Program-made: the position numbers and the translations under genes | The notes under the pieces: generated by a model | The model's database searches: none | What the model was told of the DNA's origin: nothing | The model's input: only the letters and a program-made list of their open reading frames with translations | Part shown: piece by piece, positions 1 to 60,902 of the stretch | Layout of the letters: every line of letters begins with the position of its first letter | How positions within the stretch are numbered: position 1 is the stretch's first letter | Origin: Strigops habroptila | Lineage: Eukaryota > Chordata > Aves > Psittaciformes > Psittacidae | Reading direction: 5' to 3' | Length of the DNA stretch: 64,000 bases | NCBI RefSeq assembly: GCF_004027225.2 | Contig: NC_044288.2 | Coordinates: forward strand, 21,214,744 to 21,278,743

Positions 1-1927
1 CCCTCCACTTTTGACCTTGTCCTGCTGGAATCGTGGGGGCTGGAAGGGGGGAAGGAAGGGACCCCAATGTTTGGGAGGCTGAGGACAAGGAACAGGGTGG
101 GACTATCCTGTGATCTCTCTTCGGGGAGGGAAAGGGGGGGAGGGACAAATTCTCCCCCAAAGAAGCAGCGGTGGAGAGCCGTGGAGGGGCATCGCCGAGC
201 AGAGCTGGAAAAGGGCAGGACCGGGCCGGGAGCGGGGGGGGGGGGCACTGATCCTGTCGAGAGCAGGTTGCAATGGGGCGGCGGGTGGGGGTGTGTGTGA
301 TGAATATTTTAATGTGAATCGAACAAAAGCGCGAGAGCCGCTCCGAGCATTTGCCGGAGACGGGGAAGGGCTGGAGGGAGGGAAACGAGACCCCCGAAAA
401 TCTCAGTGTCCCCCCAGATCCCCGTCCGTCCTAAGCAGCCCTCGGGGGATCCCGGGGCCATCTCGCCTCCGGGGTCCCAGCCCCGGGCGGAGCGGGGATA
501 AGGGGGGAGAAACAAATCGTGGCGGTTTCCGTGGGAATGGAGCGGGAGACGGGCCGGCTGTGACCAGCGCTTCGGTGGAGCCCGAGCTTCGCTTACCGGG
601 AGCCACCCCGAGCCCACCCGTGAGCGCCCCGAGCCTACCCGTCTCCCCAGCCGGCGGCCCCACGGCAGAGGCGCGTTCCGCGTGGGTCGCGCTGTGCTCC
701 CAGGGGCCAAATCCCTTTTCCCCAGCCCCACAAACCCCTCGGACCCCGCCGCCTTCTGCTTCCTCTGGTCTCCCGCTCTCCCCTTGATGCTGCTTCCCAC
801 GCGGGTCCCCGTGGAGACCCGGGAGGTGTGGGGGGGGGGGCTGGAGCCGGCGGTTCCGCTCCCACCGGGGACCGGGAGGCAGAGACAAAGGCGGTGAAAT
901 ATCAGTGCACGGCTAAAGCCGCTCCGAGCCCCGCGGAGCCCTTAACTAGATCGTTAGGGAATTATCCGCACCCGAAGCAGGCGTGGACGAGGGGGTGTTG
1001 CGGCCGCTCCGTCCCGTTACCGAGCGCCCCGGGGGACGGCGCCGGTGGGAGGCGACGCGCGAAGCTGCCCGGGCGCGGCGGCTGCTGGAGACGGGTCTAC
1101 GGGGAGAGCGGAGCGACTAGCGGAGGGACCGCGATCGGTACCGGGGCAGGGAGGGGACCGGGGGTCTCAGGGGTCCGTCTGTCGCCCTCCGGGGGCCGGT
1201 GGGGACCGAGGCTCGGCGGAAAGTTTGTGCCCACAGGCGGGGCAGGTCCTCTGGTCTGCGGTGGGTTCGTGCCCCGGGAGCCCGAGGGCTGAAGCTGGGG
1301 TGCCCGGGGGGGCCAGGATTAGGGGCGCGGGGCTGTGGCAGCCGGGGTGTCGGGGGGGGTCTCTCTGTGCCTCCGCGCTGATGGGCTCAGCTTTATCCAG
1401 GGCTGTAATCCCCCCTGCTCCGGTAATTAAAAACTCCGCATTACAAGGAAAACGGTGTGCAGGGAAATGTAATCAAGTCTGGAGGGGCTTAACCATCTGG
1501 TAAAGGTTAGGACCGGCACGGCGGGGGACGCGGCTGGGGGATTTGGCAGCCGTTGCGATCCGGGCTCCTCTTAATCTACCGCGGGGACAAGCGCAGTATC
1601 TGCGGGTTAATACCGGTGCCCCGAGCAGCGATCAGTCTCGCTGGGGCTCCCACGGCTCTCAATGGGACCTCCCCGGGGCTAGCCCCCTCCCCAGGTGCGT
1701 TCAGCTCCTGTAAACCGGTTCTGCTGTGGCTCCGGGGCGCGGATTGCATCCCCGCCCTGGGGCCGGCAGGGAACGGGTTAAGCAGGAGCCGGTGGTCGCG
1801 GCTCGGCCCCCCCCCAGCTCCGGGCAGGGCCCTCCCCCCCCGGCCCCGGGAGCCCGAAACTCGCTGGAAGTGCAGGAGGGAGCAAAGGCGAGGGGGGACC
1901 CCGCGCCCCCGGGAGGACGGCGGGGCC
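1..1927 (+). promoter_or_regulatory. GC/CpG-rich 5' region of the first protocadherin
   Basis: This stretch is GC- and CpG-rich, especially from about 460 onward, and leads into the ATG at 1928, so it is the likely promoter and 5' UTR. Two short AT-richer patches (about 300-350 and 1425-1480) interrupt it. No TATA box is evident at a sensible distance, and I did not find the CGCT-core element that precedes the alpha exons downstream. Several open frames cross the region, including one continuous upstream with the protocadherin frame from 1553. None shows protein-like composition beyond GC-driven Pro/Gly/Arg runs, so I do not call a gene here. Confidence 0.55.
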
Positions 1928-4414
1928 ATGGGGGCCGGGGACCGCTCCGGGCTGGGGCAGCTCTTCCTCCGCTCCCTCCTCTTCCTCTTGCTGGCCGGGC
2001 CCCCGGCACCGCGCCCGGCGGGCGGGCAGCTGCACTATGCCGTGCCGGAGGAGCTGGAGCACGGAGCCTTCGTGGCCAACCTGGGTGAGGACCTGGGGCT
2101 GGACGTGTCCACCCTGTCAGCGCGGCGGTTCCGCATCGTGTCACGGGCCGGGGCCAGGCAGTACCTGGAGGTGAACCTGGAGAACGGGATCCTCTTCGTG
2201 AACGAGCGGATTGACCGGGAGGAGGTGTGCGAGGCGGGAGGCACCTGCCTGCTCCACCTGCAGCTCCTCGTTGAGAGCCCGCTGGAGCTCTACCGTGTCG
2301 AGGTGGAGGTGCTGGACATCAACGACCACGCACCCACCTTCCCCTGGCAAGAGTATGTGCTGGAGGTGGCCGAGTCTGCCGTGCTCGGTGCCCGCTTCCC
2401 ACTGGAGAGTGCCCAGGATCCTGATGTGGGCACCAATTCGGTGCGCACCTACCGCCTCAGCCCCAATGGTTTCTTCTCACTTGAGGTGCAGACGCGCAGT
2501 GACACCAGCAAGTTTGCGGAGCTGGTGCTGGAGCGCGCCCTCGACCGTGAGCAGCAACGCGTGCACCGGCTGCTGCTCACTGCTCTTGATGGCGGCGTCC
2601 CCGAGCGCTCAGGCACAGCTCACATCCTCATCACGGTGCTGGATGCCAACGACAACGTGCCTGTCTTTGACCAGCCTTCGTATGGCATCAGCCTTCCTGA
2701 GGATGCCCCTGCCGGCACGCTGGTCATCCAGCTCAATGCCACTGACTTGGATGAGGGTCCCAATGGGGAGATCGAGTACTCCTTCAGTGGGCACGCACCA
2801 CCGCGTGTCCGGGAGCTCTTCCACATAGAGCCCTGGAGCGGGCAGGTACTGCTGAAGGGCCCTCTGGACTATGAGCGGGCAAGCCTCCATGAGCTCTACG
2901 TGCAAGCCAAGGACCGCGGACCCTCAGCTGTGGCTGTGCACTGCCGGGTGCTTGTGCACCTCCTTGATGTGAATGACAACGCACCAGAGGTGACCCTCAC
3001 CTCTGTGTCCACACCCGTGCTGGAGGATGCCCCACCAGGCACTGTCATTGCTGTCATCAGCGTTCTGGACCGGGACTCTGGAGACAACGGGCGTGTGAGC
3101 TGTGAGGTCAGCCCCGATGTACCCTTCGAGCTCCACTCCTCCTTCCACAACTACTACACGCTGGTCACCACGCGGGCACTGGACCGGGAAGTTGTGCCCG
3201 AGTATAACATAAGCATCACTGCCCGGGACATGGGCTCCCCTGCCCTGCTGACCCACAGCACCCTCACCGTCCCAGTGTCTGATGTGAACGACAACGCCCC
3301 ACGCTTCCTTCAGCCCTCCTACAGCGTCTCTGTGATGGAGAACAATGCACCAGGTGCCTCCATCTGCTCTGTCAGTGCATTGGACCCTGACTGCCAACAA
3401 AACGCCTACCTGTCCTACTCCATTGTTGATGGGCACATCCATGGCATGCCTGTGGGCACCTATGTGTCTATCAACTCAGACAGTGGGCACATGTATGCCC
3501 TGCGCTCCCTTGATTATGAGCAGATCCGCAGCTTCCAGATCCAGGTGCAAGCACAGGATGCAGGTTTCCCTCCCCTCAGTGCTAACGTCACAGTCCACAT
3601 CTTCGTGCTGGACCAGAATGACAACGCTCCAGTCATAGTTTCCCCCATGCCACGCAATGGCTCCGTGGCCACAGAGCTGGTGCCACGTTCAGCCAGGCCT
3701 GGCTACCTTGTGGGCACAGTGTCAGCAGTGGATGCAGATGCAGGGCTGAACTCCCACCTCTCCTACCAACTCCTCCAGGCCACTGACTTCACCCTCTTCA
3801 GCATGGCACCAGACACGGGTGAGCTGCGCACCCTCCGCTCCTTTCTGGAGCAGGATGCGACCCGGCAGCGGCTGGTGGTGCAGGTGCGGGATGGGGGGCA
3901 GCCAGCCCTCTCTGCCACCATGTCCCTCCTGCTTTCAGTGGTGGAGACCATGCCTCAGACTCTCTCTGACTTCAGCGAGTTCAGCCTCCCCGCGGAGCCT
4001 TCCTCATCCTCCCCACTCACCCTCTACCTTCTTGTCTCCCTGGGCTCCATCTCCTTCACCTTCCTCCTTGCCATCCTCATCCTCACAGCCATTCGATGTC
4101 GTGGAGAGCGGTGCTCCCGTGAAGGTGATGGTTGCTCACCACTCTGCTGCCGCTGCTGCCCTGGCTCCAGACCCTCCTCTGATGGCCTGAAGACATCCAA
4201 CCTGATGGCACAGGCCCCTGCAGGGACCACGGCTGCCACCTGCCTCGACATGCCTGGAGGTGGCCCCCCGGGCTACTGCTACAAGGTCTGCCTTGGTCCT
4301 GAGTCTGCACAGAGTGACTTCATGTTCCTCAAGCCCTGCAGCCCACCCCGGAACAATGAGAAGGACTCTGGGAAGTGCTCCCAGCCAGGCCAGCATCTCC
4401 AGGTCTCAAAGCAG
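1928..4414 (+). CDS. Clustered-type protocadherin, exon 1 (ectodomain, TM, variable cytoplasmic part)
   Basis: This large exon encodes 829 residues of a homophilic adhesion receptor at the cell surface. The start at 1928 is chosen for its good context (gccATGg) and the signal peptide that follows at once (residues 1-33, Leu-rich). Six EC repeats end at calcium-binding motifs at about residues 130 (DINDHAP), 239 (DANDNVP), 347 (DVNDNAP), 452 (DVNDNAP) and 562 (DQNDNAP), with EC6 after that. A membrane helix spans about 699-722, then a Cys-rich juxtamembrane stretch with CSPLCCRCC. Near the end, QSDFMFLKPCSP matches the variable cytoplasmic motif of beta/gamma protocadherins, and the EC2 motif SAQDPDVG recalls C-type members. 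The donor CAG|GTAACA follows 4414 in phase 0. Reading through it gives a short alternative tail stopping at 4450. The gene is clearly not an alpha isoform. Its place upstream of alpha suggests the delta-type subcluster reported in non-mammals, which is my inference. Confidence 0.9.
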
Positions 4415-5538
4415 GTAACACTGTGCCCATCAGTGCTCACTGGCACTTGACAGGTCCCCCAGCTCTCTTCTTCAGCCTCTGCCGTGCCTTTCCCAGAGAA
4501 TAACAGATGCTTTTGATCAGTGCAGGAATTAGGAGCTGTCAGGCAATGGGAAACTCTCCACTGAGCTTCCTGACAGGTCTAATTACTGGGGAAAAATCCC
4601 TTCCCACCACCTTTTGCACCCATTAGAGGCAACGGAGATGCTCCAGTGCCCTGGGGGATGTAGGATGGTGGGGGTGGCATCATGTGGGTGGGCAATTCAC
4701 GGTGGGACAGCCTGAGCATTACTGCTTCCCCCGAGCCAGTGGGGATCTGCAGGGTCCCACTGCTGCATCCAGGGCTGGTCCTGGCCCCAGCATCACCACT
4801 CGTGTCCCCAGCTCTGGCACCCAGGCAGCTGTGCTGCACCGGGCTGTACTGGCAGGGAGGGAGTGGGCACTTCAGGGCAGGATTTTGGTGTCAACATTTG
4901 TTAGGTAGTGAAATGAGGAATGTCTAATTTTCCCGATGAAAGACTCTTTCTGAAACACGATTACAAGGCTGGAGAGTGATGAGGCATCTAATCCACTTAC
5001 ATTTGAGTTTTAATAAAACAGCCCTTCCAAGGAGAGCCCAGGACTGGCTGCCAAAAGGCTCTCCCCACACGTCTCCCTGCACCGCTGGACACCTTTCTCT
5101 AATACATTAATGGGATTTTCCCGTTGTTCCTTGCAACCCCCTCCTGGGAAATTTGGTATACAGCCAATTTCTGCACCTCTCACCATTTAGTGCCTGAGTC
5201 CTGGGCTAAGCTTCCATTGCACCAGCAAAAGAGGCTTTTTAATATGAACAGGAATAGGAAAAGCCCCTTTCTGTCCTGGAAGGACAGACTTTAGCACTTA
5301 AACAGAGAGCAAGCCCCAGGCAACCCCAATGCCTCAGGAAGGTCCAGAAGGGAATAGGCTGGTTCAACACTGCCTCAGTTTCCCTAAAATGGGAATGTGC
5401 TGCTTATTTCTTCACAAAGTGCATGGGGAAAGAGGAGATGGGGTCCTGCATCCCTGCCTACTGCAGCCTTGTGCTGGCAGGGCTGGGCTGATTAAGAGGG
5501 TCCCAGCAACCAGCCTTGATTTTCCCTGTGTTTTCCAG

Positions 5539-5597
5539 ATCAAGCAGCCCAACATGGACTGGCTGCCTCCAAGCACACAGAGACCTGCCCTGAAGAG
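5539..5597 (+). CDS. Private constant exon 1 of the first protocadherin
   Basis: This is a 59-base exon. The acceptor is a pyrimidine-rich run ending ttttccag at 5538. It encodes IKQPNMDWLPPSTQRPALK and joins exon 1 in phase 0. The QPNxDW core is the hallmark of the first constant exon of alpha (RQPNPDW) and gamma (PPNTDW) protocadherins. The donor AG|GTACCA follows 5597 and leaves two bases for the next codon. The match in position and sequence shows that this gene carries its own constant region only 1.1 kb downstream of its ectodomain exon. Confidence 0.85.
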
Positions 5598-5701
5598 GTA
5601 CCAAATCCAGCGCTGTGGGAACAGAGGGAGTGGGTGGAAGGGGGATATGGGAACAGGGAGGTTGTCTCTAACACAGCTTTGAATCGGTCTCTTCTTTTTA
5701 G

Positions 5702-5790
5702 CTCCCAGAGCCTGGAGGATGTGGGGGAAATTCGTAAAGCCCTCCAGAAGGAGCATGAGAGGCTGTGCACTCTGGTTACCCCTGTCTCTG
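5702..5790 (+). CDS. Private constant exon 2 of the first protocadherin
   Basis: This is an 89-base exon after the acceptor cttcttttta|g. The two bases carried from the previous exon plus C make Ser, and the frame continues SQSLEDVGEIRKALQKEHER and onward to TPVS. It ends at the donor G|GTTAGT with one base left over. The sequence is acidic and helix-like and has no motif I recognise. In gamma protocadherins the middle constant exon is equally poor in motifs. The maintained splice phases on both sides support it as a real exon. Confidence 0.8.
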
Positions 5791-6038
5791 GTTAGTATTG
5801 GGGCATTCGGGCTGGGAAGACCAGACTGTCTTGTAGCTTGGTGGAGGTGCAGAGAGAGGGGGGGACATCCCTGTTCCGCAGTAGTAGAGTTTTGCGGGGT
5901 GGAAGGGGTGGCCAGCTTCCAGAAGGGAGGTTGGTGACACATGGCCACGGGCTTGCACCCTGGGACATGGATGTGACTGTACCGTCGAGCTATGGAAGTG
6001 ACCTCGCCTGAGCTGTCTTACACTCATCTTTCCTCCAG

Positions 6039-6298
6039 AGTTTCAGAAGGCTTCGGCAGGGACCAACAGCATCTGGACACCCCAGTACAGCCCCTTGTAC
6101 CCAGGACACATCCCACCCCTGGATTACCAGCACAATGTCTACATCCCTGGCACCCCCACTCTGCTTTCCAGCAAGGACGGGCCTCTCTTCCTGGGCCGGG
6201 AGAACAAGAACAGCTTCTCCACCTTTGGCAAGAGGAAGAAGATGACAACTTACTGTGACATGCATGACAACGTGGTTATCAACAACGACCTGAAATAG
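6039..6298 (+). CDS. Private constant exon 3 of the first protocadherin (C-terminus and stop)
   Basis: The acceptor tcctccag ends at 6038, and the leftover G plus AG gives Glu. The exon encodes about 86 residues and stops at TAG 6296-6298, making a 964-residue protein. Two features matter. DYQHNVYIPGTPTLL is close to the gamma constant motif around NVYIPG. Further on, NSFSTFGKRKK resembles the alpha constant motif ending ITFGKKEE. The tail MTTYCDMHDNVVINNDLK replaces the Lys-rich end of both mammalian constant regions. The role is presumably intracellular signalling or scaffolding, as for other protocadherin constant tails. Confidence 0.85.
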
Positions 6299-24480: not shown

Positions 24481-24727
24481 CGGAGAGCGGAGCAGCCCAG
24501 GGCCGCAGGCTTGGGCGATGTCGGGAAGCGTGTGAGGCGTTGGAGCAGCACACGGTGTCGCTGCAGGCTCAGAAACGGCGTGTGGGCGGCTCCGCCCCGG
24601 TGCGAGCGGCGGAGAGCCCGGCTGTGAGCGCGGGGGGGCGGCGCGGGCCGGGCAGGAGAGCCGGTGCAGCCGTGCGGCGGCGGGGAGCCGTGCGAGTCTC
24701 GGACCTCTGCCGGAGGTGGCGATAGCG
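24481..24727 (+). promoter_or_regulatory. Alpha promoter block with CGCT-core element
   Basis: This block is nearly identical before all five alpha exons. At 24545-24568 it has gcagcacacggtgtcgctgc; the CGCT at 24559-24562 lies about 170 bases before the ATG. That fits the conserved sequence element (CSE, core CGCT) of protocadherin promoters. At 24628-24641, GCGCGGGGGGGCGG resembles a CTCF motif but could equally be a GC box. In mammals CTCF at such promoters mediates stochastic isoform choice. Confidence 0.65.
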
Positions 24728-27136
24728 ATGGGCGGCGTGTGTCGGGGTGCGTTGTTGCGGCTGCTGGTGCTGCAGGCGTCCTGGGCGTTGATCGGCGGGC
24801 AGGTGCGGTACTCGGTGCCGGAGGAAGCGAAGGCCGGGACGGTGGTGGGCCGGCTGGCGCAGGACCTGGGCCTGGAGGCGGGCGAGCCGGAGGCGCGTCG
24901 GCTGCGGCTGGTGGCGCAGGGCCGGCGGGCGAGCGTGGAGGTGAGCGGGGCGCTGGTGGTGAGCTCGCGGCTGGACCGGGAGGAGCTGTGCGGGAAGAGC
25001 GCGCCGTGCGCCCTGCGCCTGGAGGTGCTGGTGGAGCGGCCGCTGCGCGTCTTCCACGTGGAGCTGGAGGTCACCGACATCAACGACAACGCCCCGGTCT
25101 TCCCCGCCGCCCGCAAAAACCTCAGCATCGCGGAATCGTCGCTGCCGGGGACTCGGTTCCCTCTGGAGGACGCGTCGGATGCAGATGTCGGAGCCAACGC
25201 GCAGCTGTCCTATAGCCTCAGCCCCAGCGAGCATTTCAGAGTAGAGGAAGAAAATAGTAATTCGCGCAGTAAATCCCTGTTTCTGGTGCTCGCGAAACCT
25301 CTGGACCGCGAGACGATGCCGATTCACCGTCTGTTGCTGACGGCGAGCGATGGGGGCCGCCCGCCGCTGGCGGGCACTGTGGAGCTGGTGATCTCGGTGC
25401 TGGACGTGAACGACAATGCGCCCCAGTTCAATCAGTCGGTGTACAGCGTACTTTTGCCCGAAGACGCCTTAGAGGGCACGCTGGTGGCACGGGTGAACGC
25501 CACGGATCCGGACTTTGGAGTATATGGTGAAGTGATTTACGAAATGGATACAGTTGTTCCTCCCTTGGCGTCAGCTGCATTCAGCATCGATCCGAAGAGA
25601 GGGGAGATTAGACTGACGGGCGCCCTGGATTTTGAGACCGTTACTTTATACAACCTACACGTTAAAGCTAGAGATGAAGGGACTCCCCCGCTGTCGGGTC
25701 ACTGCAAGGTGGTGGTGGAGGTGCTGGACGTGAACGACAACGCGCCGGAGGTGTGGGTGACGTCGCTGTCGTTGCCGGTGCCGGAGGACGCGGCGGTGGG
25801 GACGGTGGTGGCTCTGCTGAGCGTGTCGGACCGGGACTCGGGGGCGAACGGGCGCGTGCGCTGCTCGGTGTGGCCGGCGGCGCCGTTCGGTCTGGTGTCG
25901 ACGTTCGCGGGGTCGTACTCGCTGGTGCTGCGGGAGGCGCTGGACCGGGAGCGGGTGTCGGAGTACGAGGTGGAGGTGCGGGCGGAGGACGGCGGGGCGC
26001 CGCCGCTGCGCGCCAGCCGCGGTCTGCGGGTGCCGGTGTCGGACGTGAACGACAACGCGCCGGCGTTCGCGCAGGCCGTGTACACGGTGCTGGTGCGGGA
26101 GAACAACGCGGCGGGCGCGGAGCTGGCGCGGCTGTGGGCGCGGGACCCGGACGAGGCGGGCAACGGTCGCGTGAGCTACTCGGTGTCGGAGGGCGGCGGC
26201 GGGGCGTCGGTGTCGAGCTACGTGTCGGTGGACGCGGAGAGCGGGCGTCTGTGGGCGCTGCAGCCGCTGGACTACGAGGAACTGCAGGTGCTGCAGTTCG
26301 AGGTGCGGGCGGTGGACGCGGGGGAGCCGGCGAAGTGCGGCAACGCCACGGTGCAGCTCTTCGTGCTGGACGAGAACGACAACGCGCCGGCGCTGCTGCC
26401 GCCTGCCGGCGGCGGGCCGGGCGTCGGGGCGCCGGGCTCGGCGGTGCCGGGGGCGCTGTGGGCGTGGGCGTCGTGGGGGGCGCCGGCGGGGCAGGTGGTG
26501 GCGAAGATCCGCGCGGTGGACGCGGACTCGGGCTACAACGCGTGGCTGCGCTACGAGCTGTGGGAGCCGCGGGGCAAGGGCCCGTTCCGCGTGGGGCTGT
26601 ACAGCGGCGAGGTGAGCACGGCGCGGGCGCTGGAGGAGGCGGACGGCCCGCGGCAGCGCCTGGTCATCGTGGTGCGGGACCACGGCGAGCCGGCGCGCTC
26701 GGCCACGGCCACGCTGAGCGTGTCGCTGGTGGAGGGCGCCGAGGCGGCGCTGGCGGCCGCGGGCTCGTCGGGGTCGGGGCTGCGGCCGGCGGCGGAGGGC
26801 GGTGCATCGGCGACGTCGGCATCGGCGACGACGACGAACGTGTGGCTGGTGGTGGCGATCTGCGCGGTGTCGAGCCTGTTCCTGCTGGCGGTGGTGCTGT
26901 ACGGGGCGGCGCGCTGGGCGCCGCGGGCGGCCGTGCTGTCGGGGCCCGGGCCGGCCACGCTGGTGTGCGCCAGCGAAGTGGGGAGCTGGTCGTACTCGCA
27001 GCGCCAGAGCCGGAGCCTGTGCGTGGCGGACGGCGCGGGCAAGAGCGACCTGATGGTTTTCAGCCCCAACTTCCCTCCGCCGCCCGGCCCCGCGGCGAAG
27101 GAGACGCAGCCGGAGGCTCCCGCTCTGCTGGACACG
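24728..27136 (+). CDS. PCDHA: Protocadherin alpha variable exon, first in array
   Basis: This exon encodes 803 residues of an alpha-type neuronal adhesion receptor. The start at 24728 (MGGVCRG) is the first ATG in frame; where sister exons have the earlier ATG of MAMGG, this copy has ATA. A signal peptide covers 1-24. EC repeats end at about 117, 226, 334, 439 and 548 with DxNDNAP motifs. The membrane helix is about 705-727. Alpha identity rests on ATLVCASEVGSWSYSQ and KSDLMVFSPNFP in the cytoplasmic part, which match mammalian alpha almost word for word. The exon ends at ACG|GTCAGT. Oddities: the EC3 calcium motif reads DPDFGVYGE instead of DPDEGxN, eight residues are missing from EC5 after GGGGASVS, and three residues are missing in EC1. 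Only three Thr precede the membrane segment. Reading past the donor would stop at 27271. Confidence 0.93.
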
Positions 27137-30500: not shown

Positions 30501-30740
30501 TTGCCACATGATTGCCTTGCTCTCTTATTTGCTGGGTTCTTGAGAGTACTGGAGGCTGAAGAGTGTGGCCTTCGTCCTGAGAGGAGGGGAAGTTGGAGGT
30601 GCATGGAGAGCGGAAGAGCAGGAAGGTTCTTCTGTATCTAGAGGGATGGAAGGTGACAGAGAAGTGGAATGAGAGCTCTTGCCAAAGGACATGTCAGTGC
30701 TTCATGGCAAGTGTGGTGTGGCTAATTTAAAACACTTTGG
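27540..30740 (+). repeat. Two consecutive copies of the duplicated intergenic unit
   Basis: A partial copy (about 27540-28610) and a fuller copy (about 28735-30700) follow each other, sharing phrases such as actgtggcagcgatcctcc / ttggcactgatcctccaagt and caaagcaccactgcctggtc / caaagcaccagtgcctgctc. The unit was therefore duplicated within this interval as well as between genes. A CR1 end lies between the two copies. Confidence 0.65.
28616..28705 (-). mobile_element. CR1 LINE 3'-end fragment
   Basis: The run agaatcagaatagtttgtgt, then ttggaagggacttttatagg, and tccaagccccctgcaatgag is a degraded reverse-complement CR1 3' end. It separates the two intergenic copies here. Confidence 0.75.
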
Positions 30741-32040
30741 TAAAGGACAAAATGAGCAGAAGATACAAGGATGGAACGAGAAGACAAGCCGAGGCAAAGA
30801 TATGGCAGAGTGGGTCAAGAAAAGAAAAGGAAGAGAAAAAGGAAGAAGTGAAAGGAAGAAGAGAAAAAAAAAGGAGTGGGGAAAAAGAAAGGAGGGGGGA
30901 AAGGGAACCTTTGTAAGAAATAAGTAGGCAAGGAAGAAAGAAAAAAGGTAGAAAGAAGGATGGAGGAGATGATTGAGGAGATTACCAGCATGCTCTGATA
31001 CTATCTCAAGACTCTTAATGGAGATGAGGAACTCAGTATATTCAGTACTCAGGAACGCCCTGCAAGGCTTGACAAAGAGTAGTGAGGAAGAGGAATGAGA
31101 GCTCCTGCCAGAGGCCATGTCTCTCCATCCTTGCGAGCATGGTGGAGACATTGGGAAAATATTCTTGTAAAGGAAAAAAAGAACAGAAGAGACAAGGATG
31201 GAAACAGAGAGGAGGGGAGGAAAAAAGGCGAATGAAGAATGAAATATATTTAAGAAAAATAGAGTAAAAAGAGTCAAATAGAATGAAAATGAGAGAGAGA
31301 AAGAAAGAAAAAGAAACAGAAAAAAGAAAGAAAAAAGAAGGAAAAAAGAAAAAGAAAAAAGGGAAGAAAGGAGGAAGGAAAGGAAGAAAGGAAGAAAAAA
31401 GACAGGAGGAAGGAAAGAAGGAAAGAAATGAAGAAAGGAAGAAAAAGAAAGGAGGAAGGAAAGAAGGAAAGAAATGAAGAAAGGAAGAAAAAGAAAGGAG
31501 GAAGGAAAGAAGGAAAGAAATGAAGAAAGGAAGAAAAAGAAAGGAGGAAGGAAAGAAGGAAAGAAATGAAGAAAGGAAGAAAAAGAAAGGAGGAAGGAAA
31601 GAAGGAAAGAAATGAAGAAAGGAAGAAAAAGAAAGGAGGAAGGAAAGAAGGAAAGAAATGAAGAAAGGAAGAAAAAGAAAGGAGGAAGAAAAGAAGGAAA
31701 GAAACTAAGGAAGAAAGGAAGGAGAAAAGGAAGGAAGAGGAGGGAAGAAAGAATGGAGGAAAAGCAGAAATGGAAGGAAGAAGAAAAAGGAAAAAAAGGA
31801 AGCAAGAAGAGGAAGCAAAGAAGGAAGAGGGGAGAGAGAAGTAGGAATTAGAAAGAAAGACCGAGTGAGAGAGGGAGGGAATAAGGAAAAAAAGAAGATG
31901 AACGGTAGAGAACTAAAGGAAAGAATAGAAAAGGAGGGAGGAAAGAAAAGCGTCTATGCATGCAAACACGGAACAAGCAAGGAGAAAAAAGGAATGCGAA
32001 AAACAGGGAATGAAGAGAATGAAAGAGGAGAAGGGGAGGA
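30740..32040 (+). repeat. Long purine-rich tract with 46-base minisatellite
   Basis: About 1.3 kb is almost entirely A and G on the + strand, apart from a more mixed patch at about 30970-31150. Within it, about 31400-31705 is a tandem array of a 46-base purine unit. The marker gaaatgaag recurs with its T at 31429, 31475, 31521, 31567, 31613 and 31659, an exact 46-base period. The 367-codon minus-strand frame across it is a by-product of the bias. Confidence 0.9.
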
Positions 32041-32289: not shown

Positions 32290-34728
32290 ATGGTGATGAG
32301 CGTGTGTCGTGGTGCGTTGTTGCGGCTGCTGGTGCTGCAGGCGTCCTGGGCGTTGGTCGGCGGGCAGGTGCGGTACTCGGTGCCGGAGGAAGCGAAGGCC
32401 GGGACGGTGGTGGGCCGGCTGGCGCAGGACCTGGGCCTGGAGGCGGGCGAGCCGGAGGCGCGTCGGCTGCGGCTGGTGGCGCAGGGCCGGCGGGCGAGCG
32501 TGGAGGTGAGCGGGGCGAGCGGGGCGCTGGTGGTGAGCTCGCGGCTGGACCGGGAGGAGCTGTGCGGGAAGAGCGCGCCGTGCGCCCTGCGCCTGGAGGT
32601 GCTGGTGGAGCGGCCGCTGCGCGTCTTCCACGTGGAGCTGGAGGTCACCGACATCAACGACAACGCCCCGGTCTTCCCCATCGCCCGCAAAAACCTCAGC
32701 ATCGCGGAATCGTCGCTGCCGGGGACTCGGTTGCCTCTGGAGGACGCGTCGGATGCAGATGTCGGAGCCAACGCGCAGCTGTCCTATAGCCTCAGCCCTA
32801 GCGAGCATTTCAGAGTAGAGGAAGAAAATAGTAATTCGCGCAGTAAATCCCTGTTTCTGGTGCTCGCGAAACCTCTGGACCGCGAGACGATGCCGATTCA
32901 CCGTCTGGTGCTGACGGCGACTGACGGGGGCCGCCCGCCGCTGACGGGCACTGTGGAGCTGGTGATCTCGGTACTGGACGCTAACGACAATGCGCCCCAG
33001 TTCAATCAGTCGGTGTACAGCGTAGTTTTGCCCGAAGACGCCTTAGAGGGCACGCTGGTGGCACGGGTGAACGCCACGGATCCAGACGAGGGAAGTAATC
33101 GAGAAGTGATTTATGAAATAGATACTGTTGTTCATCCCTCGGCGTCAGCTGCATTCAACATCGATCGGAAGAGTGGAGAGATCAGGCTGACGGGCCCCCT
33201 GGACTTTGAAACAGTTGCTTTATATGACCTACACGTTAAAGCCAGAGATCAGGGGACTCCCCCTCTGTCGGGTCACTGCAAGGTGGTGGTGGAGGTGCTG
33301 GACGTGAACGACAACGCGCCGGAGGTGTGGGTGACGTCGCTGTCGGTGCCGGTGCCGGAGGACGCGGCGGTGGGGACGGTGGTGGCTCTGCTGAGCGTGT
33401 CGGACCGGGACTCGGGGGCGAACGGGCGCGTGCGCTGCTCGGTGTGGCCGGCGGCGCCGTTCGGTCTGGTGTCGACGTTCGCGGGGTCGTACTCGCTGGT
33501 GCTGCGGGAGGCGCTGGACCGGGAGCGGGTGTCGGAGTACGAGGTGGAGGTGCGGGCGGAGGACGGCGGGGCGCCGCCGCTGCGCGCCAGCCGCGGTCTG
33601 CGGGTGCCGGTGTCGGACGTGAACGACAACGCGCCGGCGTTCGCGCAGGCCGTGTACACGGTGCTGGCGCGGGAGAACAACGCGGCGGGCGCGGAGCTGG
33701 CGCGGCTGTGGGCGCGGGACCCGGACGAGGCGGGCAACGGTCGCGTGAGCTACTCGGTGTCGGAGGGCGGCGGCGGGGCGTCGGTGTCGGGCGGCGGGTG
33801 GCGTCCGGCGTCGAGCTACGTGTCGGTGGACGCGGAGAGCGGGCGTCTGTGGGCGCTGCAGCCGCTGGACTACGAGGAGCTGCAGGTGCTGCAGTTCGAG
33901 GTGCGGGCGGTGGACGCGGGGGAGCCGGCGAAGTGCGGCAACGCCACGGTGCAGCTCTTCGTGCTGGACGAGAACGACAACGCGCCGGCGCTGCTGCCTC
34001 CTGCCGGCGGCGGGCCGGGCGTCGGGGCGTCGGGCTCGGCGGTGCCGGGGGCGCTGTGGGCGTGGGCGTCGTGGGGGGCGCCGGCGGGGCAGGTGGTGGC
34101 GAAGATCCGCGCGGTGGACGCGGACTCGGGCTACAACGCGTGGCTGCGCTACGAGCTGTGGGAGCCGCGGGGCAAGGGCCCGTTCCGCGTGGGGCTGTAC
34201 AGCGGCGAGGTGAGCACGGCGCGGGCGCTGGAGGAGGCGGACGGCCCGCGGCAGCGCCTGGTCATCGTGGTGCGGGACCACGGCGAGCCGGCGCGCTCGG
34301 CCACGGCCACGCTGAGCGTGTCGCTGGTGGAGGGCGCCGAGGCGGCGCTGGCGGCCGCGGGCTCGTCGGGGACGGGGCTGCGGCCGGCGGAGGGTGGCGC
34401 GTCGGCGGAATCGGCGACGACGACGACGAACGTGTGGCTGGTGGTGGCGATCTGCGCGGTGTCGAGCCTGTTCCTGCTGGCGGTGGTGCTGTACGGGGCG
34501 GCGCGCTGGGCGCCGCGGGCGGCCGTGCTGTCGGGGCCCGGGCCGGCCACGCTGGTGTGCGCCAGCGAAGTGGGGAGCTGGTCGTACTCGCAGCGCCAGA
34601 GCCGGAGCCTGTGCGTGGCGGACGGCGCGGGCAAGAGCGACCTGATGGTTTTCAGCCCCAACTTCCCTCCGCCTCCCGGCCCCGCGGCGAAGGAGACGAA
34701 GCCGGAGGCTCCTGCTCTGTTGGACACG
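32290..34728 (+). CDS. PCDHA: Protocadherin alpha variable exon, second in array
   Basis: This exon encodes 813 residues. The start at 32290 (MVMSVCRG) has A at -3 and G at +4; the in-frame ATG at 32296 is a weaker alternative. It is the closest sister of the first alpha exon. EC2 is nearly identical (SLPGTR, FRVEEENSNSRSK), and EC3 shares ASAAF and DFETV, but here the EC3 calcium motif is intact (DPDEGSNRE). The EC5 insert GGGWRPAS and the EC1 repeat GASGAL are present. Likely glycosylation sequons are NLS at the EC2 start, NQS and NAT in EC3, and CGNAT in EC5. Four Thr precede the membrane helix. The cytoplasmic end reads KETKPEAPALLDT before ACG|GTCAGT. The frame beyond the donor runs to a TAG at 34789-34791. 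Confidence 0.93.
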
Positions 34729-40047: not shown

Positions 40048-40293
40048 GAGCGTGAGCGGAGCAGCCCGGGTCCGGAGGCTTGGGCGATGTCGGGGAGCGT
40101 GTGAGACGTTGGAGCAGCACACGGTGTCGCTGCAGGCTCAGAAACGGCGTGTCGGCGGCTCCGCCCCGGTGCGAGCGGCGGAGAGCCCGGCTGTCAGCGC
40201 GGGGGGGCGGCGCGGGCCGGGCAGGAGAGCCGGTGCATCCGGGCGGCGGCGGGGAGCCGTGCGGGGCCCGGGCGGATGCCAGCGGCGGCACAG
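40048..40293 (+). promoter_or_regulatory. Alpha promoter block, third unit
   Basis: The CGCT core is at 40128-40131 and the CTCF-like/GC-box motif at 40197-40210. An extra in-frame ATG at 40276 lies just upstream of the preferred start and would add six residues ahead of the signal peptide. Confidence 0.65.
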
Positions 40294-42756
40294 ATGGCGA
40301 TGGGCGGCGTGTATCGTGGTGCGTTGGTGCGGCTGCTGGTGCTGCAGGCGTCCTGGGCGTTGGTCGGCGGGCAGGTGCGGTACTCGGTGCCGGAGGAAGC
40401 GAAGGCCGGGACGGTGGTGGGCCGGCTGGCGCAGGACCTGGGCCTGGAGGCGGGCGAGCCGGAGGCGCGTCGTCTGCGGCTGGTGGCGCAGGGCCGGCGG
40501 GCGAGCGTGGAGGTGAGCGGGGCGAGCGGGGCGCTGGTGGTGAGCTCGCGGCTGGACCGGGAGGAGCTGTGCGGGAAGAGCGCGCCGTGCGCCCTGCGCC
40601 TGGAGGTGCTGGTGGAGCGGCCGCTGCGCGTCTTCCACGTGGAGCTGGAGGTCACCGACATCAACGACAACGCCCCGGTCTTCCCCGCCGCCCGCAAAAA
40701 CCTCAGCATCGCGGAATTATCTACGATGCCGGGGTCTCGGTTCCCGCTTGAGGGCGCATCGGATGCAGATGTCGGAGCTAACGCGCAGCTCTCCTATAGC
40801 CTCAGCCCTAGCGAGCATTTTACGGTCGATATTAAATCCTCTGATGAACACAGAAAATCTCTCTTCCTGGTGCTCACAAAGCCTCTGGACCGCGAGACGA
40901 TGCCGATTCACCGTCTGATGCTAACGGCGACTGATGGGGGCCGTCCGCCGCTAACGGGCAATGTAGAGCTCCTGATCTCGGTGCTGGACGCAAACGACAA
41001 CGCTCCTCAGTTCAACCAGTCAGTGTATAAAGTGCAGCTGCCGGAGAGCGCTGCAGAGGGGACGCTGGTGGCACGGGTGAACGCCACGGATTCAGACGAA
41101 GGTGTGAATAAGGAGTTTACTTACAGTCTCGTCAGTTCGGTTCCTGTTGGTAAGCGAGATCTGTTCTCCATTGATCCAGAGACGGGCGAGATCAGACTAA
41201 CCGGTGATCTGGACTTCGAAGACATCAGCTTATACGAGTTGCAAATCGAAGCGAGAGACAAAGGGACGCCTCCGCTGTCAGGTCACTGCAGCGTGGAACT
41301 GGAGGTGCTGGACGTGAACGACAACGCGCCGGAGGTGTGGGTGACGTCGCTGTCGGTGCCGGTGCCGGAGGACGCGGCGGTGGGGACGGTGGTGGCTCTG
41401 CTGAGCGTGTCGGACCGGGACTCGGGGGCGAACGGGCGCGTGCGCTGCTCGGTGTGGCCGGCGGCGCCGTTCGGTCTGGTGTCGACGTTCGCGGGGTCGT
41501 ACTCGCTGGTGCTGCGGGAGGCGCTGGACCGGGAGCGGGTGTCGGAGTACGAGGTGAAGGTGCGGGCGGAGGACGGCGGGGCGCCGCCGCTGCGCGCCAG
41601 CCGCGGTCTGCGGGTGCCGGTGTCGGACGTGAACGACAACGCGCCGGCGTTCTCGCAGGCCGTGTACACGGTGCTGGCGCGGGAGAACAACGCGGCGGGC
41701 GCGGAGCTGGCGCGGCTGTGGGCGCGGGACCCGGACGAGGCGGGCAACGGTCGCGTGAGCTACTCGGTGTCGGAGGGCGGCGGCGGGGCGTCGGTGTCGG
41801 GCGGCGGGTGGCGTCCGGCGTCGAGCTACGTGTCGGTGGACGCGGAGAGCGGGCGTCTGTGGGCGCTGCAGCCGCTGGACTACGAGGAGCTGCAGGTGCT
41901 GCAGTTCGAGGTGCGGGCGGTGGACGCGGGGGAGCCGGCGCTGTGCGGCAACGCCACGGTGCAGCTCTTCGTGCTGGACGAGAACGACAACGCGCCGGCG
42001 CTGCTGCCGCCTGTCGGCGGCGGGCCGGGCGTCGGGGCGCCGGGTTCGGCGGCATCGGGCTCGGCGGTGCCGGGGGCGCTGTGGGCGTGGGCGTCGTGGG
42101 GGGCGCCGGCGGGGCAGGTGGTGGCGAAGATCCGCGCGGTGGACGCGGACTCGGGCTACAACGCGTGGCTGCGCTACGAGCTGTGGGAGCCGCGGGGCAA
42201 GGGCCCGTTCCGCGTGGGGCTGTACAGCGGCGAGGTGAGCACGGCGCGGGCGCTGGAGGAGGCGGACGGCCCGCGGCAGCGCCTGGTCATCGTGGTGCGG
42301 GACCACGGCGAGCCGGCGCGCTCGGCCACGGCCACGCTGAGCGTGTCGCTGGTGGAGGGCGCCGAGGCGGCGCTGGCGGCCGCGGGCTCGTCGGGGTCGG
42401 GGCTGCGGCCGGCGAAGGGTGGCGCGGCAGCAGAGTCGACGACGACGACGACGACGAACGTGTGGCTGGTGGTGGCGATCTGCGCGGTGTCGAGCCTGTT
42501 CCTGCTGGCGGTGGTGCTGTACGGGGCGGCGCGCTGGGCGCCGCGGGCGGCCATGCTGTCGAGTCCCGGGCCGGCCACGCTGGTGTGCGCCAGCGAAGTG
42601 GGGAGCTGGTCGTACTCGCAGCGCCAGAGCCGGAGCCTGTGCGTGGCGGACGGCGCGGGCAAGAGCGACCTGATGGTTTTCAGCCCCAACTTCCCTCCGC
42701 CTCCCGGCCCCGCGGCGAAGGAGACGCAGCCGGAGGCTCCCGCTCTGCTGAACACG
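40294..42756 (+). CDS. PCDHA: Protocadherin alpha variable exon, third in array
   Basis: This exon encodes 821 residues from the ATG at 40294, chosen because MAMGG is shared with the fourth and fifth exons; 40276 is possible. EC1 and EC4-EC6 match the sister exons almost completely, while about 40712-41310 (most of EC2-EC3) is distinct: LSTMPGSR opens EC2, HFTVDIKSSDEH follows, and EC3 contains DSDEGVNKE and VPVGKRDLFSID. Local base composition drops in GC across this stretch. EC3 ends HCSVELEV, shared with the fourth exon but not the first, second or fifth. The EC6 linker has the extra GSAAS unit, and six Thr precede the helix. The cytoplasmic part reads PRAAMLSSPGPATLV. The donor is ACG|GTCAGT after LLNT. 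Confidence 0.93.
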
Positions 42757-49121: not shown

Positions 49122-51560
49122 ATGGCGATGGGCGGCGTGTGTCGTGGTGCGTTGTTGCGGCTGCTGTTGCTGCAGGCGTCCTGGGCGTTGGTCGGCGGGC
49201 AGGTGCGGTACTCGGTGCTGGAGGAAGCGAAGGCCGGGACGGTGGTGGGCCGGCTGGCGCAGGACCTGGGCCTGGAGGCGGGCGAGCCGGAGGCGCGTCG
49301 TCTGCGGCTGGTGGCGCAGGGCCGGCGGGAGAGTGTGGAGGTGAGCGGGGCGAGCGGGGCGCTGGTGGTGAGCTCGCGGCTGGATCGGGAGGAGCTGTGC
49401 GGGAAGAGCGCGCCGTGCGCCCTGCGCCTGGAGGTGCTGGTGGAGCGGCCGCTGCGCGTCTTCCACGTGGAGCTGGAGGTCACCGACATCAACGACAACG
49501 CCCCGGTCTTCCCCGCCGCCCGCAAAAACCTCAGTGTATCGGAGAACTCCCCTGCCGGGTCTCGGTTCCCGCTTGAGGGCGCGTCAGATGCAGATGTCGG
49601 AGCCAACGCACAGCTCTCCTATAGCCTCAGTCCCAGCGAAAACTTCGCTTTGGAAGCGAAATCCAAGGACGATAACAAAATCTCCGTAGTTCTCATATTA
49701 ATGAAATCTCTGGACCGCGAGACGATGCCGATTCACCGTCTGGTGTTGACAGCGAATGACGGGGGCCGTCCGCCTCTAACGGGCACGATGGAGCTTGTAA
49801 TCTCGGTAGCAGACGTGAACGACAACGCACCTCAGTTCAACCAGTCGCTGTATAAAGTGCAGCTGCCGGAGAACGCTGCCCCGGGAACTGTGTTTTTCCA
49901 GCTGTTAGCGACAGACAAAGATGAGGGAATTAATCGGGAGATATATTACTCGTTTAGTGATACGGTTTCCGCCAAAGTTCAGGACCTTTTCCTTATTGAC
50001 GGAGAATCCGGGGAATTAAGGACTGCGGGTGAATTGGATTTCGAGGACGTTCGATCCTATGACTTGGAGATCGAAGCGAGAGATAAAGGGACGCCTCCGC
50101 TTTCGGGTCACTGCAGCGTGGAGCTGCAGGTGCTGGACGTGAACGACAACGCGCCGGAGGTGTGGGTGACGTCGCTGTCGGTGCCAGTGCCGGAGGACGC
50201 GGCGGTGGGGACGGTGGTGGCTCTGCTGAGCGTGTCGGACCGGGACTCGGGGGCGAACGGGCGCGTGCGCTGCTCGGTGTGGCCGGCGGCGCCGTTCGGT
50301 CTGGTGTCGACGTTCGCGGAGTCGTACTCGCTGGTGCTGCGGGAGGCGCTGGACCGGGAGCGGGTGTCGGAGTACGAGGTGGAGGTGCGGGCGGAGGACG
50401 GCGGGGCGCCGCCGCTGCGCGCCAGCCGCGGTCTGCGGGTGCCGGTGTCGGACGTGAACGACAACGCGCCGGCGTTCGCGCAGGCCGTGTACACGGTGCT
50501 GGCGCGGGAGAACAACGCGGCGGGCGCGGAGCTGGCGCGGCTGTGGGCGCGGGACCCGGACGAGGCGGGCAACGGTCGCGTGAGCTACTCGGTGTCGGAG
50601 GGCGGCGGCGGGGCGTCGGTGTCGGGCGGCGGGTGGCATCCGGCGTCGAGCTACGTGTCGGTGGACGCGGAGAGCGGGCGTCTGTGGGCGCTGCAGCCGC
50701 TGGACTACGAGGAGCTGCAGGTGCTGCAGTTCGAGGTGCGGGCGGTGGACGCGGGGGAGCCGGCGCTGTGCGGCAACGCCACGGTGCAGCTCTTCGTGCT
50801 GGACGAGAACGACAACGCGCCGGCGCTGCTGCCGCCTGTCGGCGGCGGGCCGGGCGTCGGGGCGTCGGGCTCGGCGGTGCCGGGGGCGCTGTGGGCGTGG
50901 GCGTCGTGGGGGGCGCCGGCGGGGCAGGTGGTGGCGAAGATCCGCGCGGTGGACGCGGACTCGGGCTACAACGCGTGGCTGCGCTACGAGCTGTGGGAGC
51001 CGCGGGGCAAGGGCCCGTTCCGCGTGGGGCTGTACAGCGGCGAGGTGAGCACGGCGCGGGCGCTGGAGGAGGCGGACGGCCCGCGGCAGCGCCTGGTCAT
51101 CGTGGTGCGGGACCACGGCGAGCCGGCGCGCTCGGCCACGGCCACGCTGAGCGTGTCGCTGGTGGAGGGCGCCGAGGCGGCGCTGGCGGCCGCGGGCTCG
51201 TCGGGGACGGGGCTGCGGCCGGCGGAGGACGGTGCATCGGCGGCATCGACGACGACGACGAACGTGTGGCTGGTGGTGGCGATCTGCGCGGTGTCGAGCC
51301 TGTTCCTGCTGGCGGTGATGCTGTACGGGGCGGCGCGCTGGGCGCCGCGGGCGGCCGTGCTGTCGGGGCCCGGGCCGGCCACGCTGGTGTGCGCCAGCGA
51401 AGTGGGGAGCTGGTCGTACTCGCAGCGCCAGAGCCGGAGCCTGTGCGTGGCGGACGGCGTGGGCAAGAGCGACCTGATGGTTTTCAGCCCCAACTTCCCT
51501 CCGCCTCCCGGCCCCGCGGCGAAGGAGATGCAGCCGGAGGCTCCCGCTCTGCTGCAGACG
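49122..51560 (+). CDS. PCDHA: Protocadherin alpha variable exon, fourth in array
   Basis: This exon encodes 813 residues from ATG 49122 (MAMGGVCRG). The first EC1 strand reads YSVLEEAKAG, whereas all sisters and most protocadherins have Pro at that point (YSVPEE). EC1 also has Glu for Ala in GRRESVEV. EC2 opens SVSENSPAGS like the fifth exon but then diverges (ENFALEAKSKDDNK, ILMKSLDRE). EC3 has ATDKDEGINRE and is the least alpha-like of the set in its first half. EC3 ends HCSVELQV as in the third exon. In EC4, TFAESYS has Glu for Gly. The EC5 insert reads GGGWHPAS. Four Thr precede the helix. The cytoplasmic part keeps ATLVCASEVGSWSYSQ, ends LLQT, and is followed by ACG|GTCAGT. Confidence 0.93.
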
Positions 51561-58436: not shown

Positions 58437-60902
58437 ATGGCGATGGGCGGCGTGTGTCGTGGTGCGTTGTTGCGGCTGCTGGTGCTGCAGGTGACCTGGG
58501 CGTTGGTCGGCGGGCAGGTGCGGTACTCGGTGCCGGAGGAAGCGAAGGCCGGGACGGTGGTGGGCCGGCTGGCGCAGGACCTGGGCCTGGAGGCGGGCGA
58601 GCCGGAGGCGCGTCGGCTGCGGCTGGTGGCGCAGGGCCGGCGGGCGAGCGTGGAGGTGAGCGGGGCGAGCGGGGCGCTGGTGGTGAGCTCGCGGCTGGAC
58701 CGGGAGGAGCTGTGCGGGAAGAGCGCGCCGTGCGCCCTGCGCCTGGAGGTGCTGGTGGAGCGGCCGCTGCGCGTCTTCCACGTGGAGCTGGAGGTTACCG
58801 ACATCAACGACAACGCCCCGGTCTTCCCCGCCGCCCGCAAAAACCTCAGTGTATCGGAGAACTCCCCTGCCGGGTCTCGGTTCCCTCTGGAGGGCGCGTC
58901 GGATGCAGATGTCGGAGCCAACGCGCAGCTGTCGTACAGCCTTAGCCCCAGCGAGCATTTCGCTTTGGATTTACAAAAAACCGAGGAGGAGGGTGAGTCC
59001 TTATTCCTGGTGCTCAGAAAACCTCTGGACCGCGAGACGATGCCGATTCACCGTCTGGTACTGACGGCGAGTGACGGGGGCCGTCCGCTGCTGACAGGCA
59101 CAGTGGAGCTGATGATCTCGGTGCTAGACGCCAACGACAACACGCCCCAGTTCAACCAGTCTGTGTATAAAGTGCGGCTGCCGGAAAATTCTGAACGCGG
59201 TACTATAGTGTTCAGAGTAACAGCCACGGATTTGGATGAGGGGACGAACAGGAATGTCTCGTACTCTCTGCTTAACTTGTTCCCTCAGGATGAAAGAGAC
59301 GTTTTCGGGATCAACAGGGACAGCGGAGAGATCCGTCTCCGAGGAGATTTAGACTTTGAGGATGTTGGTGTCTATCGCCTGCAAGTGGATGCGACAGATC
59401 AGGGAAACCCACCCCTGACGGGACACTGCAAAGTCGTGGTGGAGGTGCTGGACGTGAACGACAACGCGCCGGAGGTGTGGGTGACGTCGCTGTCGGTGCC
59501 GGTGCCGGAGGACGCGGCGGTGGGGACGGTGGTGGCTCTGCTGAGCGTGTCGGACCGGGACTCGGGGGCGAACGGGCGCGTGCGCTGCTCGGTGTGGCCG
59601 GCGGCGCCGTTCGGTCTGGTGTCGACGTTCGCGGGGTCGTACTCGCTGGTGCTGCGGGAGGCGCTGGACCGGGAGCGGGTGTCGGAGTACGAGGTGGAGG
59701 TGCGGGCGGAGGACGGCGGGGCGCCGCCGCTGCGCGCCAGCCGCGGTCTGCGGGTGCCGGTGTCGGACGTGAACGACAACGCGCCGGCGTTCGCGCAGGC
59801 CGTGTACACGGTGCTGGCGCGGGAGAACAACGCGGCGGGCGCGGAGCTGGCGCGGCTGTGGGCGCGGGACCCGGACGAGGCGGGCAACGGTCGCGTGAGC
59901 TACTCGGTGTCGGAGGGCGGCGGCGGGGCGTCGGTGTCGGGCGGCGGGTGGCGTCCGGCGTCGAGCTACGTGTCGGTGGACGCGGAGAGCGGGCGTCTGT
60001 GGGCGCTGCAGCCGCTGGACTACGAGGAGCTGCAGGTGCTGCAGTTCGAGGTGCGGGCAGTGGACGCGGGGGAGCCGGCGCTGTGCGGCAACGCCACGGT
60101 GCAGCTCTTCGTGCTGGACGAGAACGACAACGCGCCGGCGCTGCTGCCGCCTGCCGGCGGAGGGCCGGGCGTCGGGGCGTCGGGCTCGGCGGCGTCGGGC
60201 TCGGCGGTGCCGGGGGCGCTGTGGGCGTGGGCTTCGTGGGGGGCGCCGGCGGGGCAGGTGGTGGCGAAGATCCGCGCGGTGGACGCGGACTCGGGCTACA
60301 ACGCGTGGCTGCGCTACGAGCTGTGGGAGCCGCGGGGCAAGGGCCCGTTCCGCGTGGGGCTGTACAGCGGCGAGGTGAGCACGGCGCGGGCGCTGGAGGA
60401 GGCGGACGGCCCGCGGCAGCGCCTGGTCATCGTGGTGCGGGACCACGGCGAGCCGGCGCGCTCGGCCACGGCCACGCTGAGCGTGTCGCTGGTGGAGGGC
60501 GCCGAGGCGGCGCTGGCGGCCGCGGGCTCGTCGGGGGTGGGGCTGCGGCCGGCGGAGGGTGGCGCGTCGGCGGAGTCGACGACGACGACGACGACGACGA
60601 CGAACGTGTGGCTGGTGGTGGCGATCTGCGCGGTGTCGAGCCTGTTCCTGCTGGCGGTGGTGCTGTACGGGGCGGCGCGCTGGGCGCCGCGGGCGGCCGT
60701 GCTGTCGAGTCCCGGGCCGGCCACGCTGGTGTGCGCCAGCGAAGTGGGGAGCTGGTCGTACTCGCAGCGCCAGAGCCGGAGCCTGTGCGTGGCGGACGGC
60801 GTGGGCAAGAGCGACCTGATGGTTTTCAGCCCCAACTTCCCTCCGCCGCCCGGCCCCGCGGCGAAGGAGACGCAGCCGGATGCTCCCGCTCTGCTGCAGA
60901 CG
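58437..60902 (+). CDS. PCDHA: Protocadherin alpha variable exon, fifth in array
   Basis: This exon encodes 822 residues from ATG 58437 (MAMGGVCRG); this is the longest of the five. The signal peptide has VTWALVGG instead of ASWALVGG. EC2 starts SVSENSPAGS as in the fourth exon, then HFALDLQKTEEEGES. EC3 is distinctive: KVRLPENSERGTIVF, ATDLDEGTNRNVS and NLFPQDERDVFGIN, closest in style to mammalian alpha EC3. It ends HCKVVVEV like the first two exons. In EC2, the usual DANDNAPQF reads DANDNTPQF. The EC6 linker has the GSAAS repeat, and eight Thr precede the helix, the longest run. The cytoplasmic part ends KETQPDAPALLQT before ACG|GTCAGT. The read-through frame stops at 61073. Confidence 0.93.

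What the first reader, a model, noticed from the sequence alone, without database searches (positions are those of the whole stretch)
1928..6298. Protocadherin with its own private constant region ahead of the alpha cluster
Seen: a large ectodomain exon followed within 1.9 kb by three small exons with conserved splice phases, together encoding 964 residues. The small exons mix gamma-like (NVYIPG) and alpha-like (FSTFGKRKK) constant motifs and end in a tail unlike either. Known: mammalian alpha and gamma clusters share one constant set each, and beta genes have none. Non-mammalian vertebrates have been reported to keep extra subclusters such as delta. Inference: this is a one-gene relic subcluster retained in birds, possibly close to the ancestral form from which the alpha and gamma tails diverged.
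Basis: partly seen in the sequence, partly recalled or inferred. Interest (0 to 1): 0.72.

Follow-up and report, generated by a model that had tools for sequence, protein, structure and literature searches.

The report
Known single-gene protocadherin delta subcluster
This is a complete cell-adhesion gene with its own private tail exons, sitting just ahead of the protocadherin alpha array; it matches the published one-gene "delta" subcluster that non-mammalian vertebrates keep and mammals lost, so it is real but already known.

Summary
A 2,487-bp exon (1928-4414) is followed by three small exons (5539-5597, 5702-5790, 6039-6298), all GT-AG, giving 964 residues with six cadherin repeats and a clustered-protocadherin tail. 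Five alpha variable exons follow; no other tail exons were found. The identification is in print: the one-gene protocadherin-delta subcluster at the cluster's 5' end, reported in shark, teleosts, coelacanth, amphibians, lizard and birds, lost in mammals (PMC2764143; PMC4978886). "Close to ancestral" is not shown; one paper says delta tails evolve faster than alpha or gamma tails. Added here: delta lacks the promoter element shared by the five alpha exons; its FSTFGK aligns with alpha's WAVE-binding FITFGK; its ectodomain resembles non-clustered PCDH10 most (60% in EC1-3), but trees do not resolve this. Orthology to a named delta gene was untested: no such sequence was reachable, and 13 requests to search the window's genome did not complete.

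The parts
1..1927 (+). GC-rich, CpG-rich 5' flank and presumed promoter of the delta gene; no copy of the alpha-type conserved promoter element above chance
   Evidence: GC 0.67-0.70, CpG o/e 0.70-0.82; best match to the 23-bp alpha element has 8 mismatches, while 60 Markov copies of the same DNA had minima of 7-10
1928..4414 (+). Exon 1: signal peptide (by eye), six cadherin repeats, membrane segment from residue 697 (by eye), juxtamembrane cytoplasmic part
   Evidence: open frame, donor AAGCAG|gtaaca, phase 0; Pfam Cadherin, Cadherin_2, Cadherin_C_2
5539..5597 (+). Constant-type exon 1 (59 bp), begins IKQPNMDW
   Evidence: GT-AG junctions; Cadherin_tail match starts here
5702..5790 (+). Constant-type exon 2 (89 bp)
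   Evidence: GT-AG junctions
6039..6298 (+). Constant-type exon 3 with stop codon
   Evidence: acceptor and stop; Cadherin_tail; best window hit of recalled human alpha and gamma tails, E 1e-4 and 0.001
6134..6151 (+). NVYIPG motif (residue 911 on) shared with the gamma constant region
   Evidence: alignment with a recalled human gamma tail; position
6215..6232 (+). FSTFGK, a candidate WAVE-complex receptor motif (WIRS), residues 938-943, aligned with alpha FITFGK
   Evidence: the alpha motif FITFGK is named in PMC6047886; consensus in PMC10411975
7475..7480 (+). AATAAA, candidate poly(A) signal about 1.2 kb after the stop (others at 8509 and 8537), before the first alpha exon
24728..27136 (+). 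Alpha variable exon a1 (context)
   Evidence: 23-bp promoter element at 24545-24567
32290..34728 (+). Alpha variable exon a2 (context)
   Evidence: element starts at 32113
40276..42756 (+). Alpha variable exon a3 (context)
   Evidence: element starts at 40114
49122..51560 (+). Alpha variable exon a4 (context)
   Evidence: element starts at 48942
58437..60902 (+). Alpha variable exon a5 (context)
   Evidence: element starts at 58254

Best explanation
[quoted passage not shown] Shown from sequence: one ectodomain exon, three private tail exons with clean junctions, a position 5' of alpha variable exons, a tail of the clustered-protocadherin family, and no alpha-type promoter element above chance. 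Inferred: it is transcribed from its own CpG-rich promoter, spliced to its own three tail exons and ended at its own poly(A) signal, outside the CTCF-based promoter choice used for alpha exons. It would therefore be expressed without stochastic choice, like the mammalian C-type genes without that element (alphaC2, gammaC4, gammaC5). The protein would bind like with like across neuron contacts through its cadherin repeats and recruit the WAVE actin-regulating complex through FSTFGK in its tail.
For: Exact gene model. Domain content, and tail above the Pfam cut-off. Five alpha variable exons downstream; no second set of tail exons found with the delta tail at E 0.001 or with recalled alpha and gamma tails, whose best window hit is delta's own last exon. 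The published delta anatomy and position are the same: single gene, 5' end, constant exons, with anole delta splice sites checked by RT-PCR (PMC2764143), and a frog gene plus a constant-domain tree whose species include chicken (PMC4978886). Promoter element: 5 of 5 alpha exons (it was defined from them), delta flank no better than chance. Mammalian genes lacking it are alphaC2, beta1, gammaC4 and gammaC5 (PMC7811963). FSTFGK fits the WIRS pattern Phi-x-T/S-F-x-x and aligns with alpha FITFGK, whose mutation abolishes rescue in mouse neurons (PMC6047886).
Against: No named delta sequence was available, so orthology rests on anatomy, position and literature, not on a tree with delta genes. No RNA evidence for the junctions. 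The upstream neighbour (Zmat2 in lizard and human) lies outside the window, and the genome search did not complete. Over EC1-3 and over EC1-6 the ectodomain is more like non-clustered PCDH10 than any clustered protein compared, though not in EC4 or EC6. A WIRS-like hexapeptide occurs by chance in 916 of 5000 shuffled tails, so only its aligned position is informative. A diverged promoter element would escape the test. PMC4978886 reports low delta expression in frog up to stage 45.
Confidence: 0.93

Rival explanations
1. Exon 1 is an ordinary alpha-cluster variable exon that is spliced to the alpha constant exons; the nearby small exons are unused.
For: The exon-1 donor is in phase 0, and the alpha donors, placed by eye at ACG|gtcagt, are in the same phase, so cross-splicing would keep the frame.
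Against: The nearer exons have intact frames and splice sites and a significant constant-region match. Exon 1 lacks the alpha promoter element and falls outside a clade that holds all alpha exons in each tree: 7 of 7 alpha rows, 5 of 5 (100/99 in both).
Confidence: 0.03
2. It is a non-clustered delta-2 protocadherin of the PCDH10 kind that happens to lie beside the cluster.
For: PCDH10 is its best match among solved chains (782 bits against 594 for gammaB4, both EC1-6). In EC1-3 the in-register PCDH10 score is about 425 bits against 365 for gammaC4 and 360 for alphaC2, and identity is 60%, best in both directions among the rows compared. The best trees pair the two (66/59, 62/51), and the pair falls with the non-clustered genes (68/46).
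Against: Mouse PCDH10 has exon 1 plus exons 2-5 and several isoforms (PMC9040349). In EC4 the window alpha exons, and in EC6 gammaB4, are closer than PCDH10. Trees with the gene among clustered genes are not rejected (p 0.26 and 0.52; that tree was marginally better than the free one).
Confidence: 0.04

Closest known systems
Protocadherin-delta subcluster gene of anole, coelacanth, amphibians, teleosts, elephant shark, birds
   Same: single gene; own constant exons; 5' end of the cluster ahead of alpha
Protocadherin alpha and gamma clusters
   Same: large ectodomain exon plus three small constant exons; tail of one Pfam family
   Different: here the constant exons serve one variable exon; no alpha promoter element; tail 31% and 30% identical to recalled human alpha and gamma tails
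Non-clustered PCDH10
   Same: closest ectodomain among the rows compared (60% over EC1-3; 58% over EC1-6, though not in EC4 and EC6 taken alone); PCDH10 also has a WIRS motif
   Different: genomic position; exon number; tail type (recalled PCDH10 tail)

Membership tests
Protocadherin-delta subcluster | single ectodomain exon with its own set of three constant exons | tested here: met
   gene model; only tail exons found in the window; splicing not observed
Protocadherin-delta subcluster | position at the 5' end of the cluster, immediately ahead of alpha variable exons | tested here: met
   first alpha exon at 24728 on the same strand; no protocadherin hit between at E 0.001
Protocadherin-delta subcluster | upstream neighbour is the non-protocadherin gene Zmat2 | not testable with these tools
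   the window starts 1.9 kb before the gene; genome search unanswered in 13 tries
Protocadherin-delta subcluster | groups with lizard and coelacanth delta genes in a tree | not testable with these tools
   I had no tool that gives a vertebrate delta sequence
Clustered protocadherin | clustered-type constant region | tested here: met
   Cadherin_tail 46.9 bits, cut-off 22
Alpha variable exon | conserved promoter element about 200 bp before the start codon | tested here: not met
   5 of 5 alpha exons have it (it was defined from them); delta flank at chance level
Alpha variable exon | groups with alpha variable exons in EC1-3 | tested here: not met
   alpha clade 100/99 without it
Non-clustered delta-2 protocadherin (PCDH10) | groups with PCDH10 rather than clustered genes | tested here: inconclusive
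   supports 66/59 and 62/51; tested alternatives p 0.13-0.26 and 0.51-0.52

The most novel reading that the evidence does not exclude
The delta gene may be a bridge between the dispersed PCDH10-like genes and the clusters: a PCDH10-like ectodomain joined to a cluster-type tail, under a promoter without the CTCF-type element. It could be the surviving line of the gene from which the clusters grew, before stochastic promoter choice was added.
Probability: 0.15. Interest if true: 0.5.

Novelty: already known. Interest (0 to 1): 0.15.

Why it matters
It confirms that the window holds a complete, apparently functional delta gene and corrects the impression that it is a discovery. The useful residue is testable: whether delta escapes the CTCF-based promoter choice, whether it recruits WAVE through FSTFGK, and whether it is the clustered gene nearest to PCDH10. 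Each bears on how neuronal self-recognition clusters arose and on what mammals lost.

Tried and rejected
Rejected: chance ORFs (clean frame and splice sites, family tail match). Rejected: an alpha variable exon. Left open: a close tie to PCDH10; two 16-row trees do not resolve it. tblastn over the window with the delta protein, its tail and five alpha proteins at E 0.001 showed only the delta gene and five alpha exons in the printed rows (delta, tail, a1, a3). Recalled alpha and gamma tails at E 10 gave, besides delta's own exons, only weak scattered hits with E 0.24 or more; short diverged exons could still be missed. RNA families: 0 matches at gathering score among 4227. ORFs of 120 aa or more between 6300 and 23800: no convincing gene, judged by eye. 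Solved-structure search for the tail: no hit up to E 10; same for a recalled PCDH10 tail piece, so my memory that PCDH10 carries the same hexapeptide is unverified. Paper searches listed no further paper that I recognised as treating avian delta (listings only). Of these I also opened the fugu paper PMC1852091 (passages; the word delta is absent) and the chicken paper PMC4013082 (passage; nothing on delta).
Full report
What is there. The window gene reads from 1928 to 6298 on the + strand. Four exons of 2487, 59, 89 and 260 bp join in frame into 964 residues, with GT-AG at all three introns and phases 0, 2 and 1 at the junctions. The protein has, by eye, a signal-like start and a membrane segment from residue 697. 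Pfam finds one Cadherin_2 and five Cadherin stretches, the membrane-proximal Cadherin_C_2 domain and the Cadherin_tail domain.

Surroundings. tblastn at E 0.001 of the delta protein, its tail and the five alpha proteins finds this gene and five large alpha-type exons at 24728-27136, 32290-34728, 40276-42756, 49122-51560 and 58437-60902, all on the same strand (hits were printed for delta, its tail, a1 and a3). No other tail exons were found; recalled human alpha and gamma tails hit delta's last exon best, at E 1e-4 and 0.001. A window alpha piece (a4) matches the solved chains of alpha7 and alpha4 best. A candidate poly(A) signal lies at 7475, others at 8509 and 8537, all before the first alpha exon.

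What it is. Jiang and colleagues (PMC2764143; [quoted passage not shown] They say it is retained in elephant shark, teleosts, coelacanth, amphibians and birds and lost in mammals, and they confirmed anole delta splice sites by RT-PCR. Etlioglu and colleagues (PMC4978886; passages only) find it in frog, and their constant-domain tree includes chicken among its species. The elephant-shark paper that both cite (Yu et al. 2008) was not seen. The window gene has the published anatomy and position, so the novelty is nil at the level of kind. I could not place it in a tree with named delta genes.

Tail motifs. Against recalled human tails, delta matches alpha at 42 of 134 aligned positions and gamma at 34 of 113, while alpha and gamma match each other at 32 of 124. 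The gamma-like NVYIPG and the alpha-like FSTFGK are both aligned in place. The alpha motif FITFGK is the WAVE-complex receptor sequence, and changing it to FIAAGK abolishes rescue of neuron migration (PMC6047886, passages). The consensus Phi-x-T/S-F-x-x (PMC10411975, passages) fits FSTFGK. Such a pattern turns up in 916 of 5000 shuffled delta tails, so the aligned position, not the pattern alone, carries the argument. WAVE binding by delta is inferred.

Promoter. The five alpha exons share an identical 23-bp block whose first base lies 162 to 183 bp before the start codons I assigned; it contains a CGCT box. This fits the described CTCF-binding element about 200 bp upstream. I defined the block from these five exons, so 5 of 5 is by construction; the test is delta. 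In the 1927 bp before delta the best match has 8 mismatches, while 60 Markov copies of that DNA gave minima of 7 to 10, with 21 of 60 at 8 or fewer. In mammals the genes without this element are alphaC2, beta1, gammaC4 and gammaC5, and C-type genes are expressed constitutively (PMC7811963, passages). By analogy delta should lie outside stochastic promoter choice. This is a prediction: a diverged element would not be seen by this test, and frog alpha promoters carry the element without the CGCT box.

Ectodomain kinship. Among the rows compared, delta is closest to PCDH10: 196 of 327 (60%) in EC1-3, then alphaC2 170 of 317 (54%) and gammaC4 167 of 324 (52%); PCDH10 is in turn closest to delta. 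In-register EC1-3 scores say the same: about 425 bits for PCDH10, 365 for gammaC4, 360 for alphaC2. Over EC1-6 it is 370 of 637 (58%), but by repeat PCDH10 is not always nearest: in EC4 the window alpha exons (57.7% against 54.8%) and in EC6 gammaB4 (53.3% against 50.0%) are closer. Two maximum-likelihood trees of 16 rows pair delta and PCDH10 with weak support (66/59; 62/51). In one search the pair sits among the clustered genes; it falls with the non-clustered ones (68/46). Delta with the clustered genes is not rejected (p 0.26 and 0.52), nor is PCDH10 with the other delta-2 genes (0.25 and 0.51); both constrained trees were marginally better than the free tree. The alpha exons form a clade at 100/99 without delta in both. 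So delta is not an alpha exon, and its exact branch is open. For comparison, PCDH10 also stands second by summed score for alphaC2 and gammaC5 queries, but its long chain inflates that sum; in register gammaC5 (352 bits) slightly exceeds PCDH10 (344) for alphaC2, and gammaC4 (377) exceeds PCDH10 (347) for gammaC5. The name 'delta' is also used for the non-clustered delta-protocadherins (PMC7339444, passages), an easy confusion here.

On 'ancestral'. PMC4978886 states that delta constant domains evolve faster than alpha and gamma ones. That argues against reading the tail as a frozen ancestor. The intermediate identities fit either view.

In passing. The five alpha exons are nearly identical outside EC2-EC3. 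Mean pairwise dS (NG86, 10 pairs) is 0.021 in EC1, 0.517 in EC2, 1.568 in EC3, 0.004 in EC4, 0.009 in EC5 and 0.033 from EC6 to the exon end. The 100-base profile shows sharp borders, with two smaller divergent patches, at the start of the exon (12.9% in the step 24680-24770) and near 26720-26816 (6.3%). Published high/low ratios, computed by other methods, are 3.40 for anole alpha and, in table rows whose header I did not see, 7.86 for mouse alpha and 231 for a zebrafish group. That EC2 and EC3 escape gene conversion and hold binding specificity is already stated in PMC4978886; the degree here may still deserve its own look.

Verdict. A correctly seen and, at its core, correctly read member of a published gene group.

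Noticed in passing
24728-27136, 32290-34728, 40276-42756, 49122-51560, 58437-60902: Five alpha variable exons nearly identical in EC1, EC4, EC5 and EC6 to the exon end (mean dS 0.004-0.033) but strongly diverged in EC2 and EC3 (0.52 and 1.57): strong homogenisation that leaves diversity mainly in the recognition repeats.
   Followed up: partly
24545, 32113, 40114, 48942, 58254 (first base of each, + strand): An identical 23-bp promoter element with a CGCT box before each of the five alpha exons.
   Followed up: yes
31298-31827: Purine-rich tandem array of a 46-base unit, 11.6 copies, just before the second alpha exon; strong purine skew in 30001-32000 and 38001-40000.
   Followed up: no
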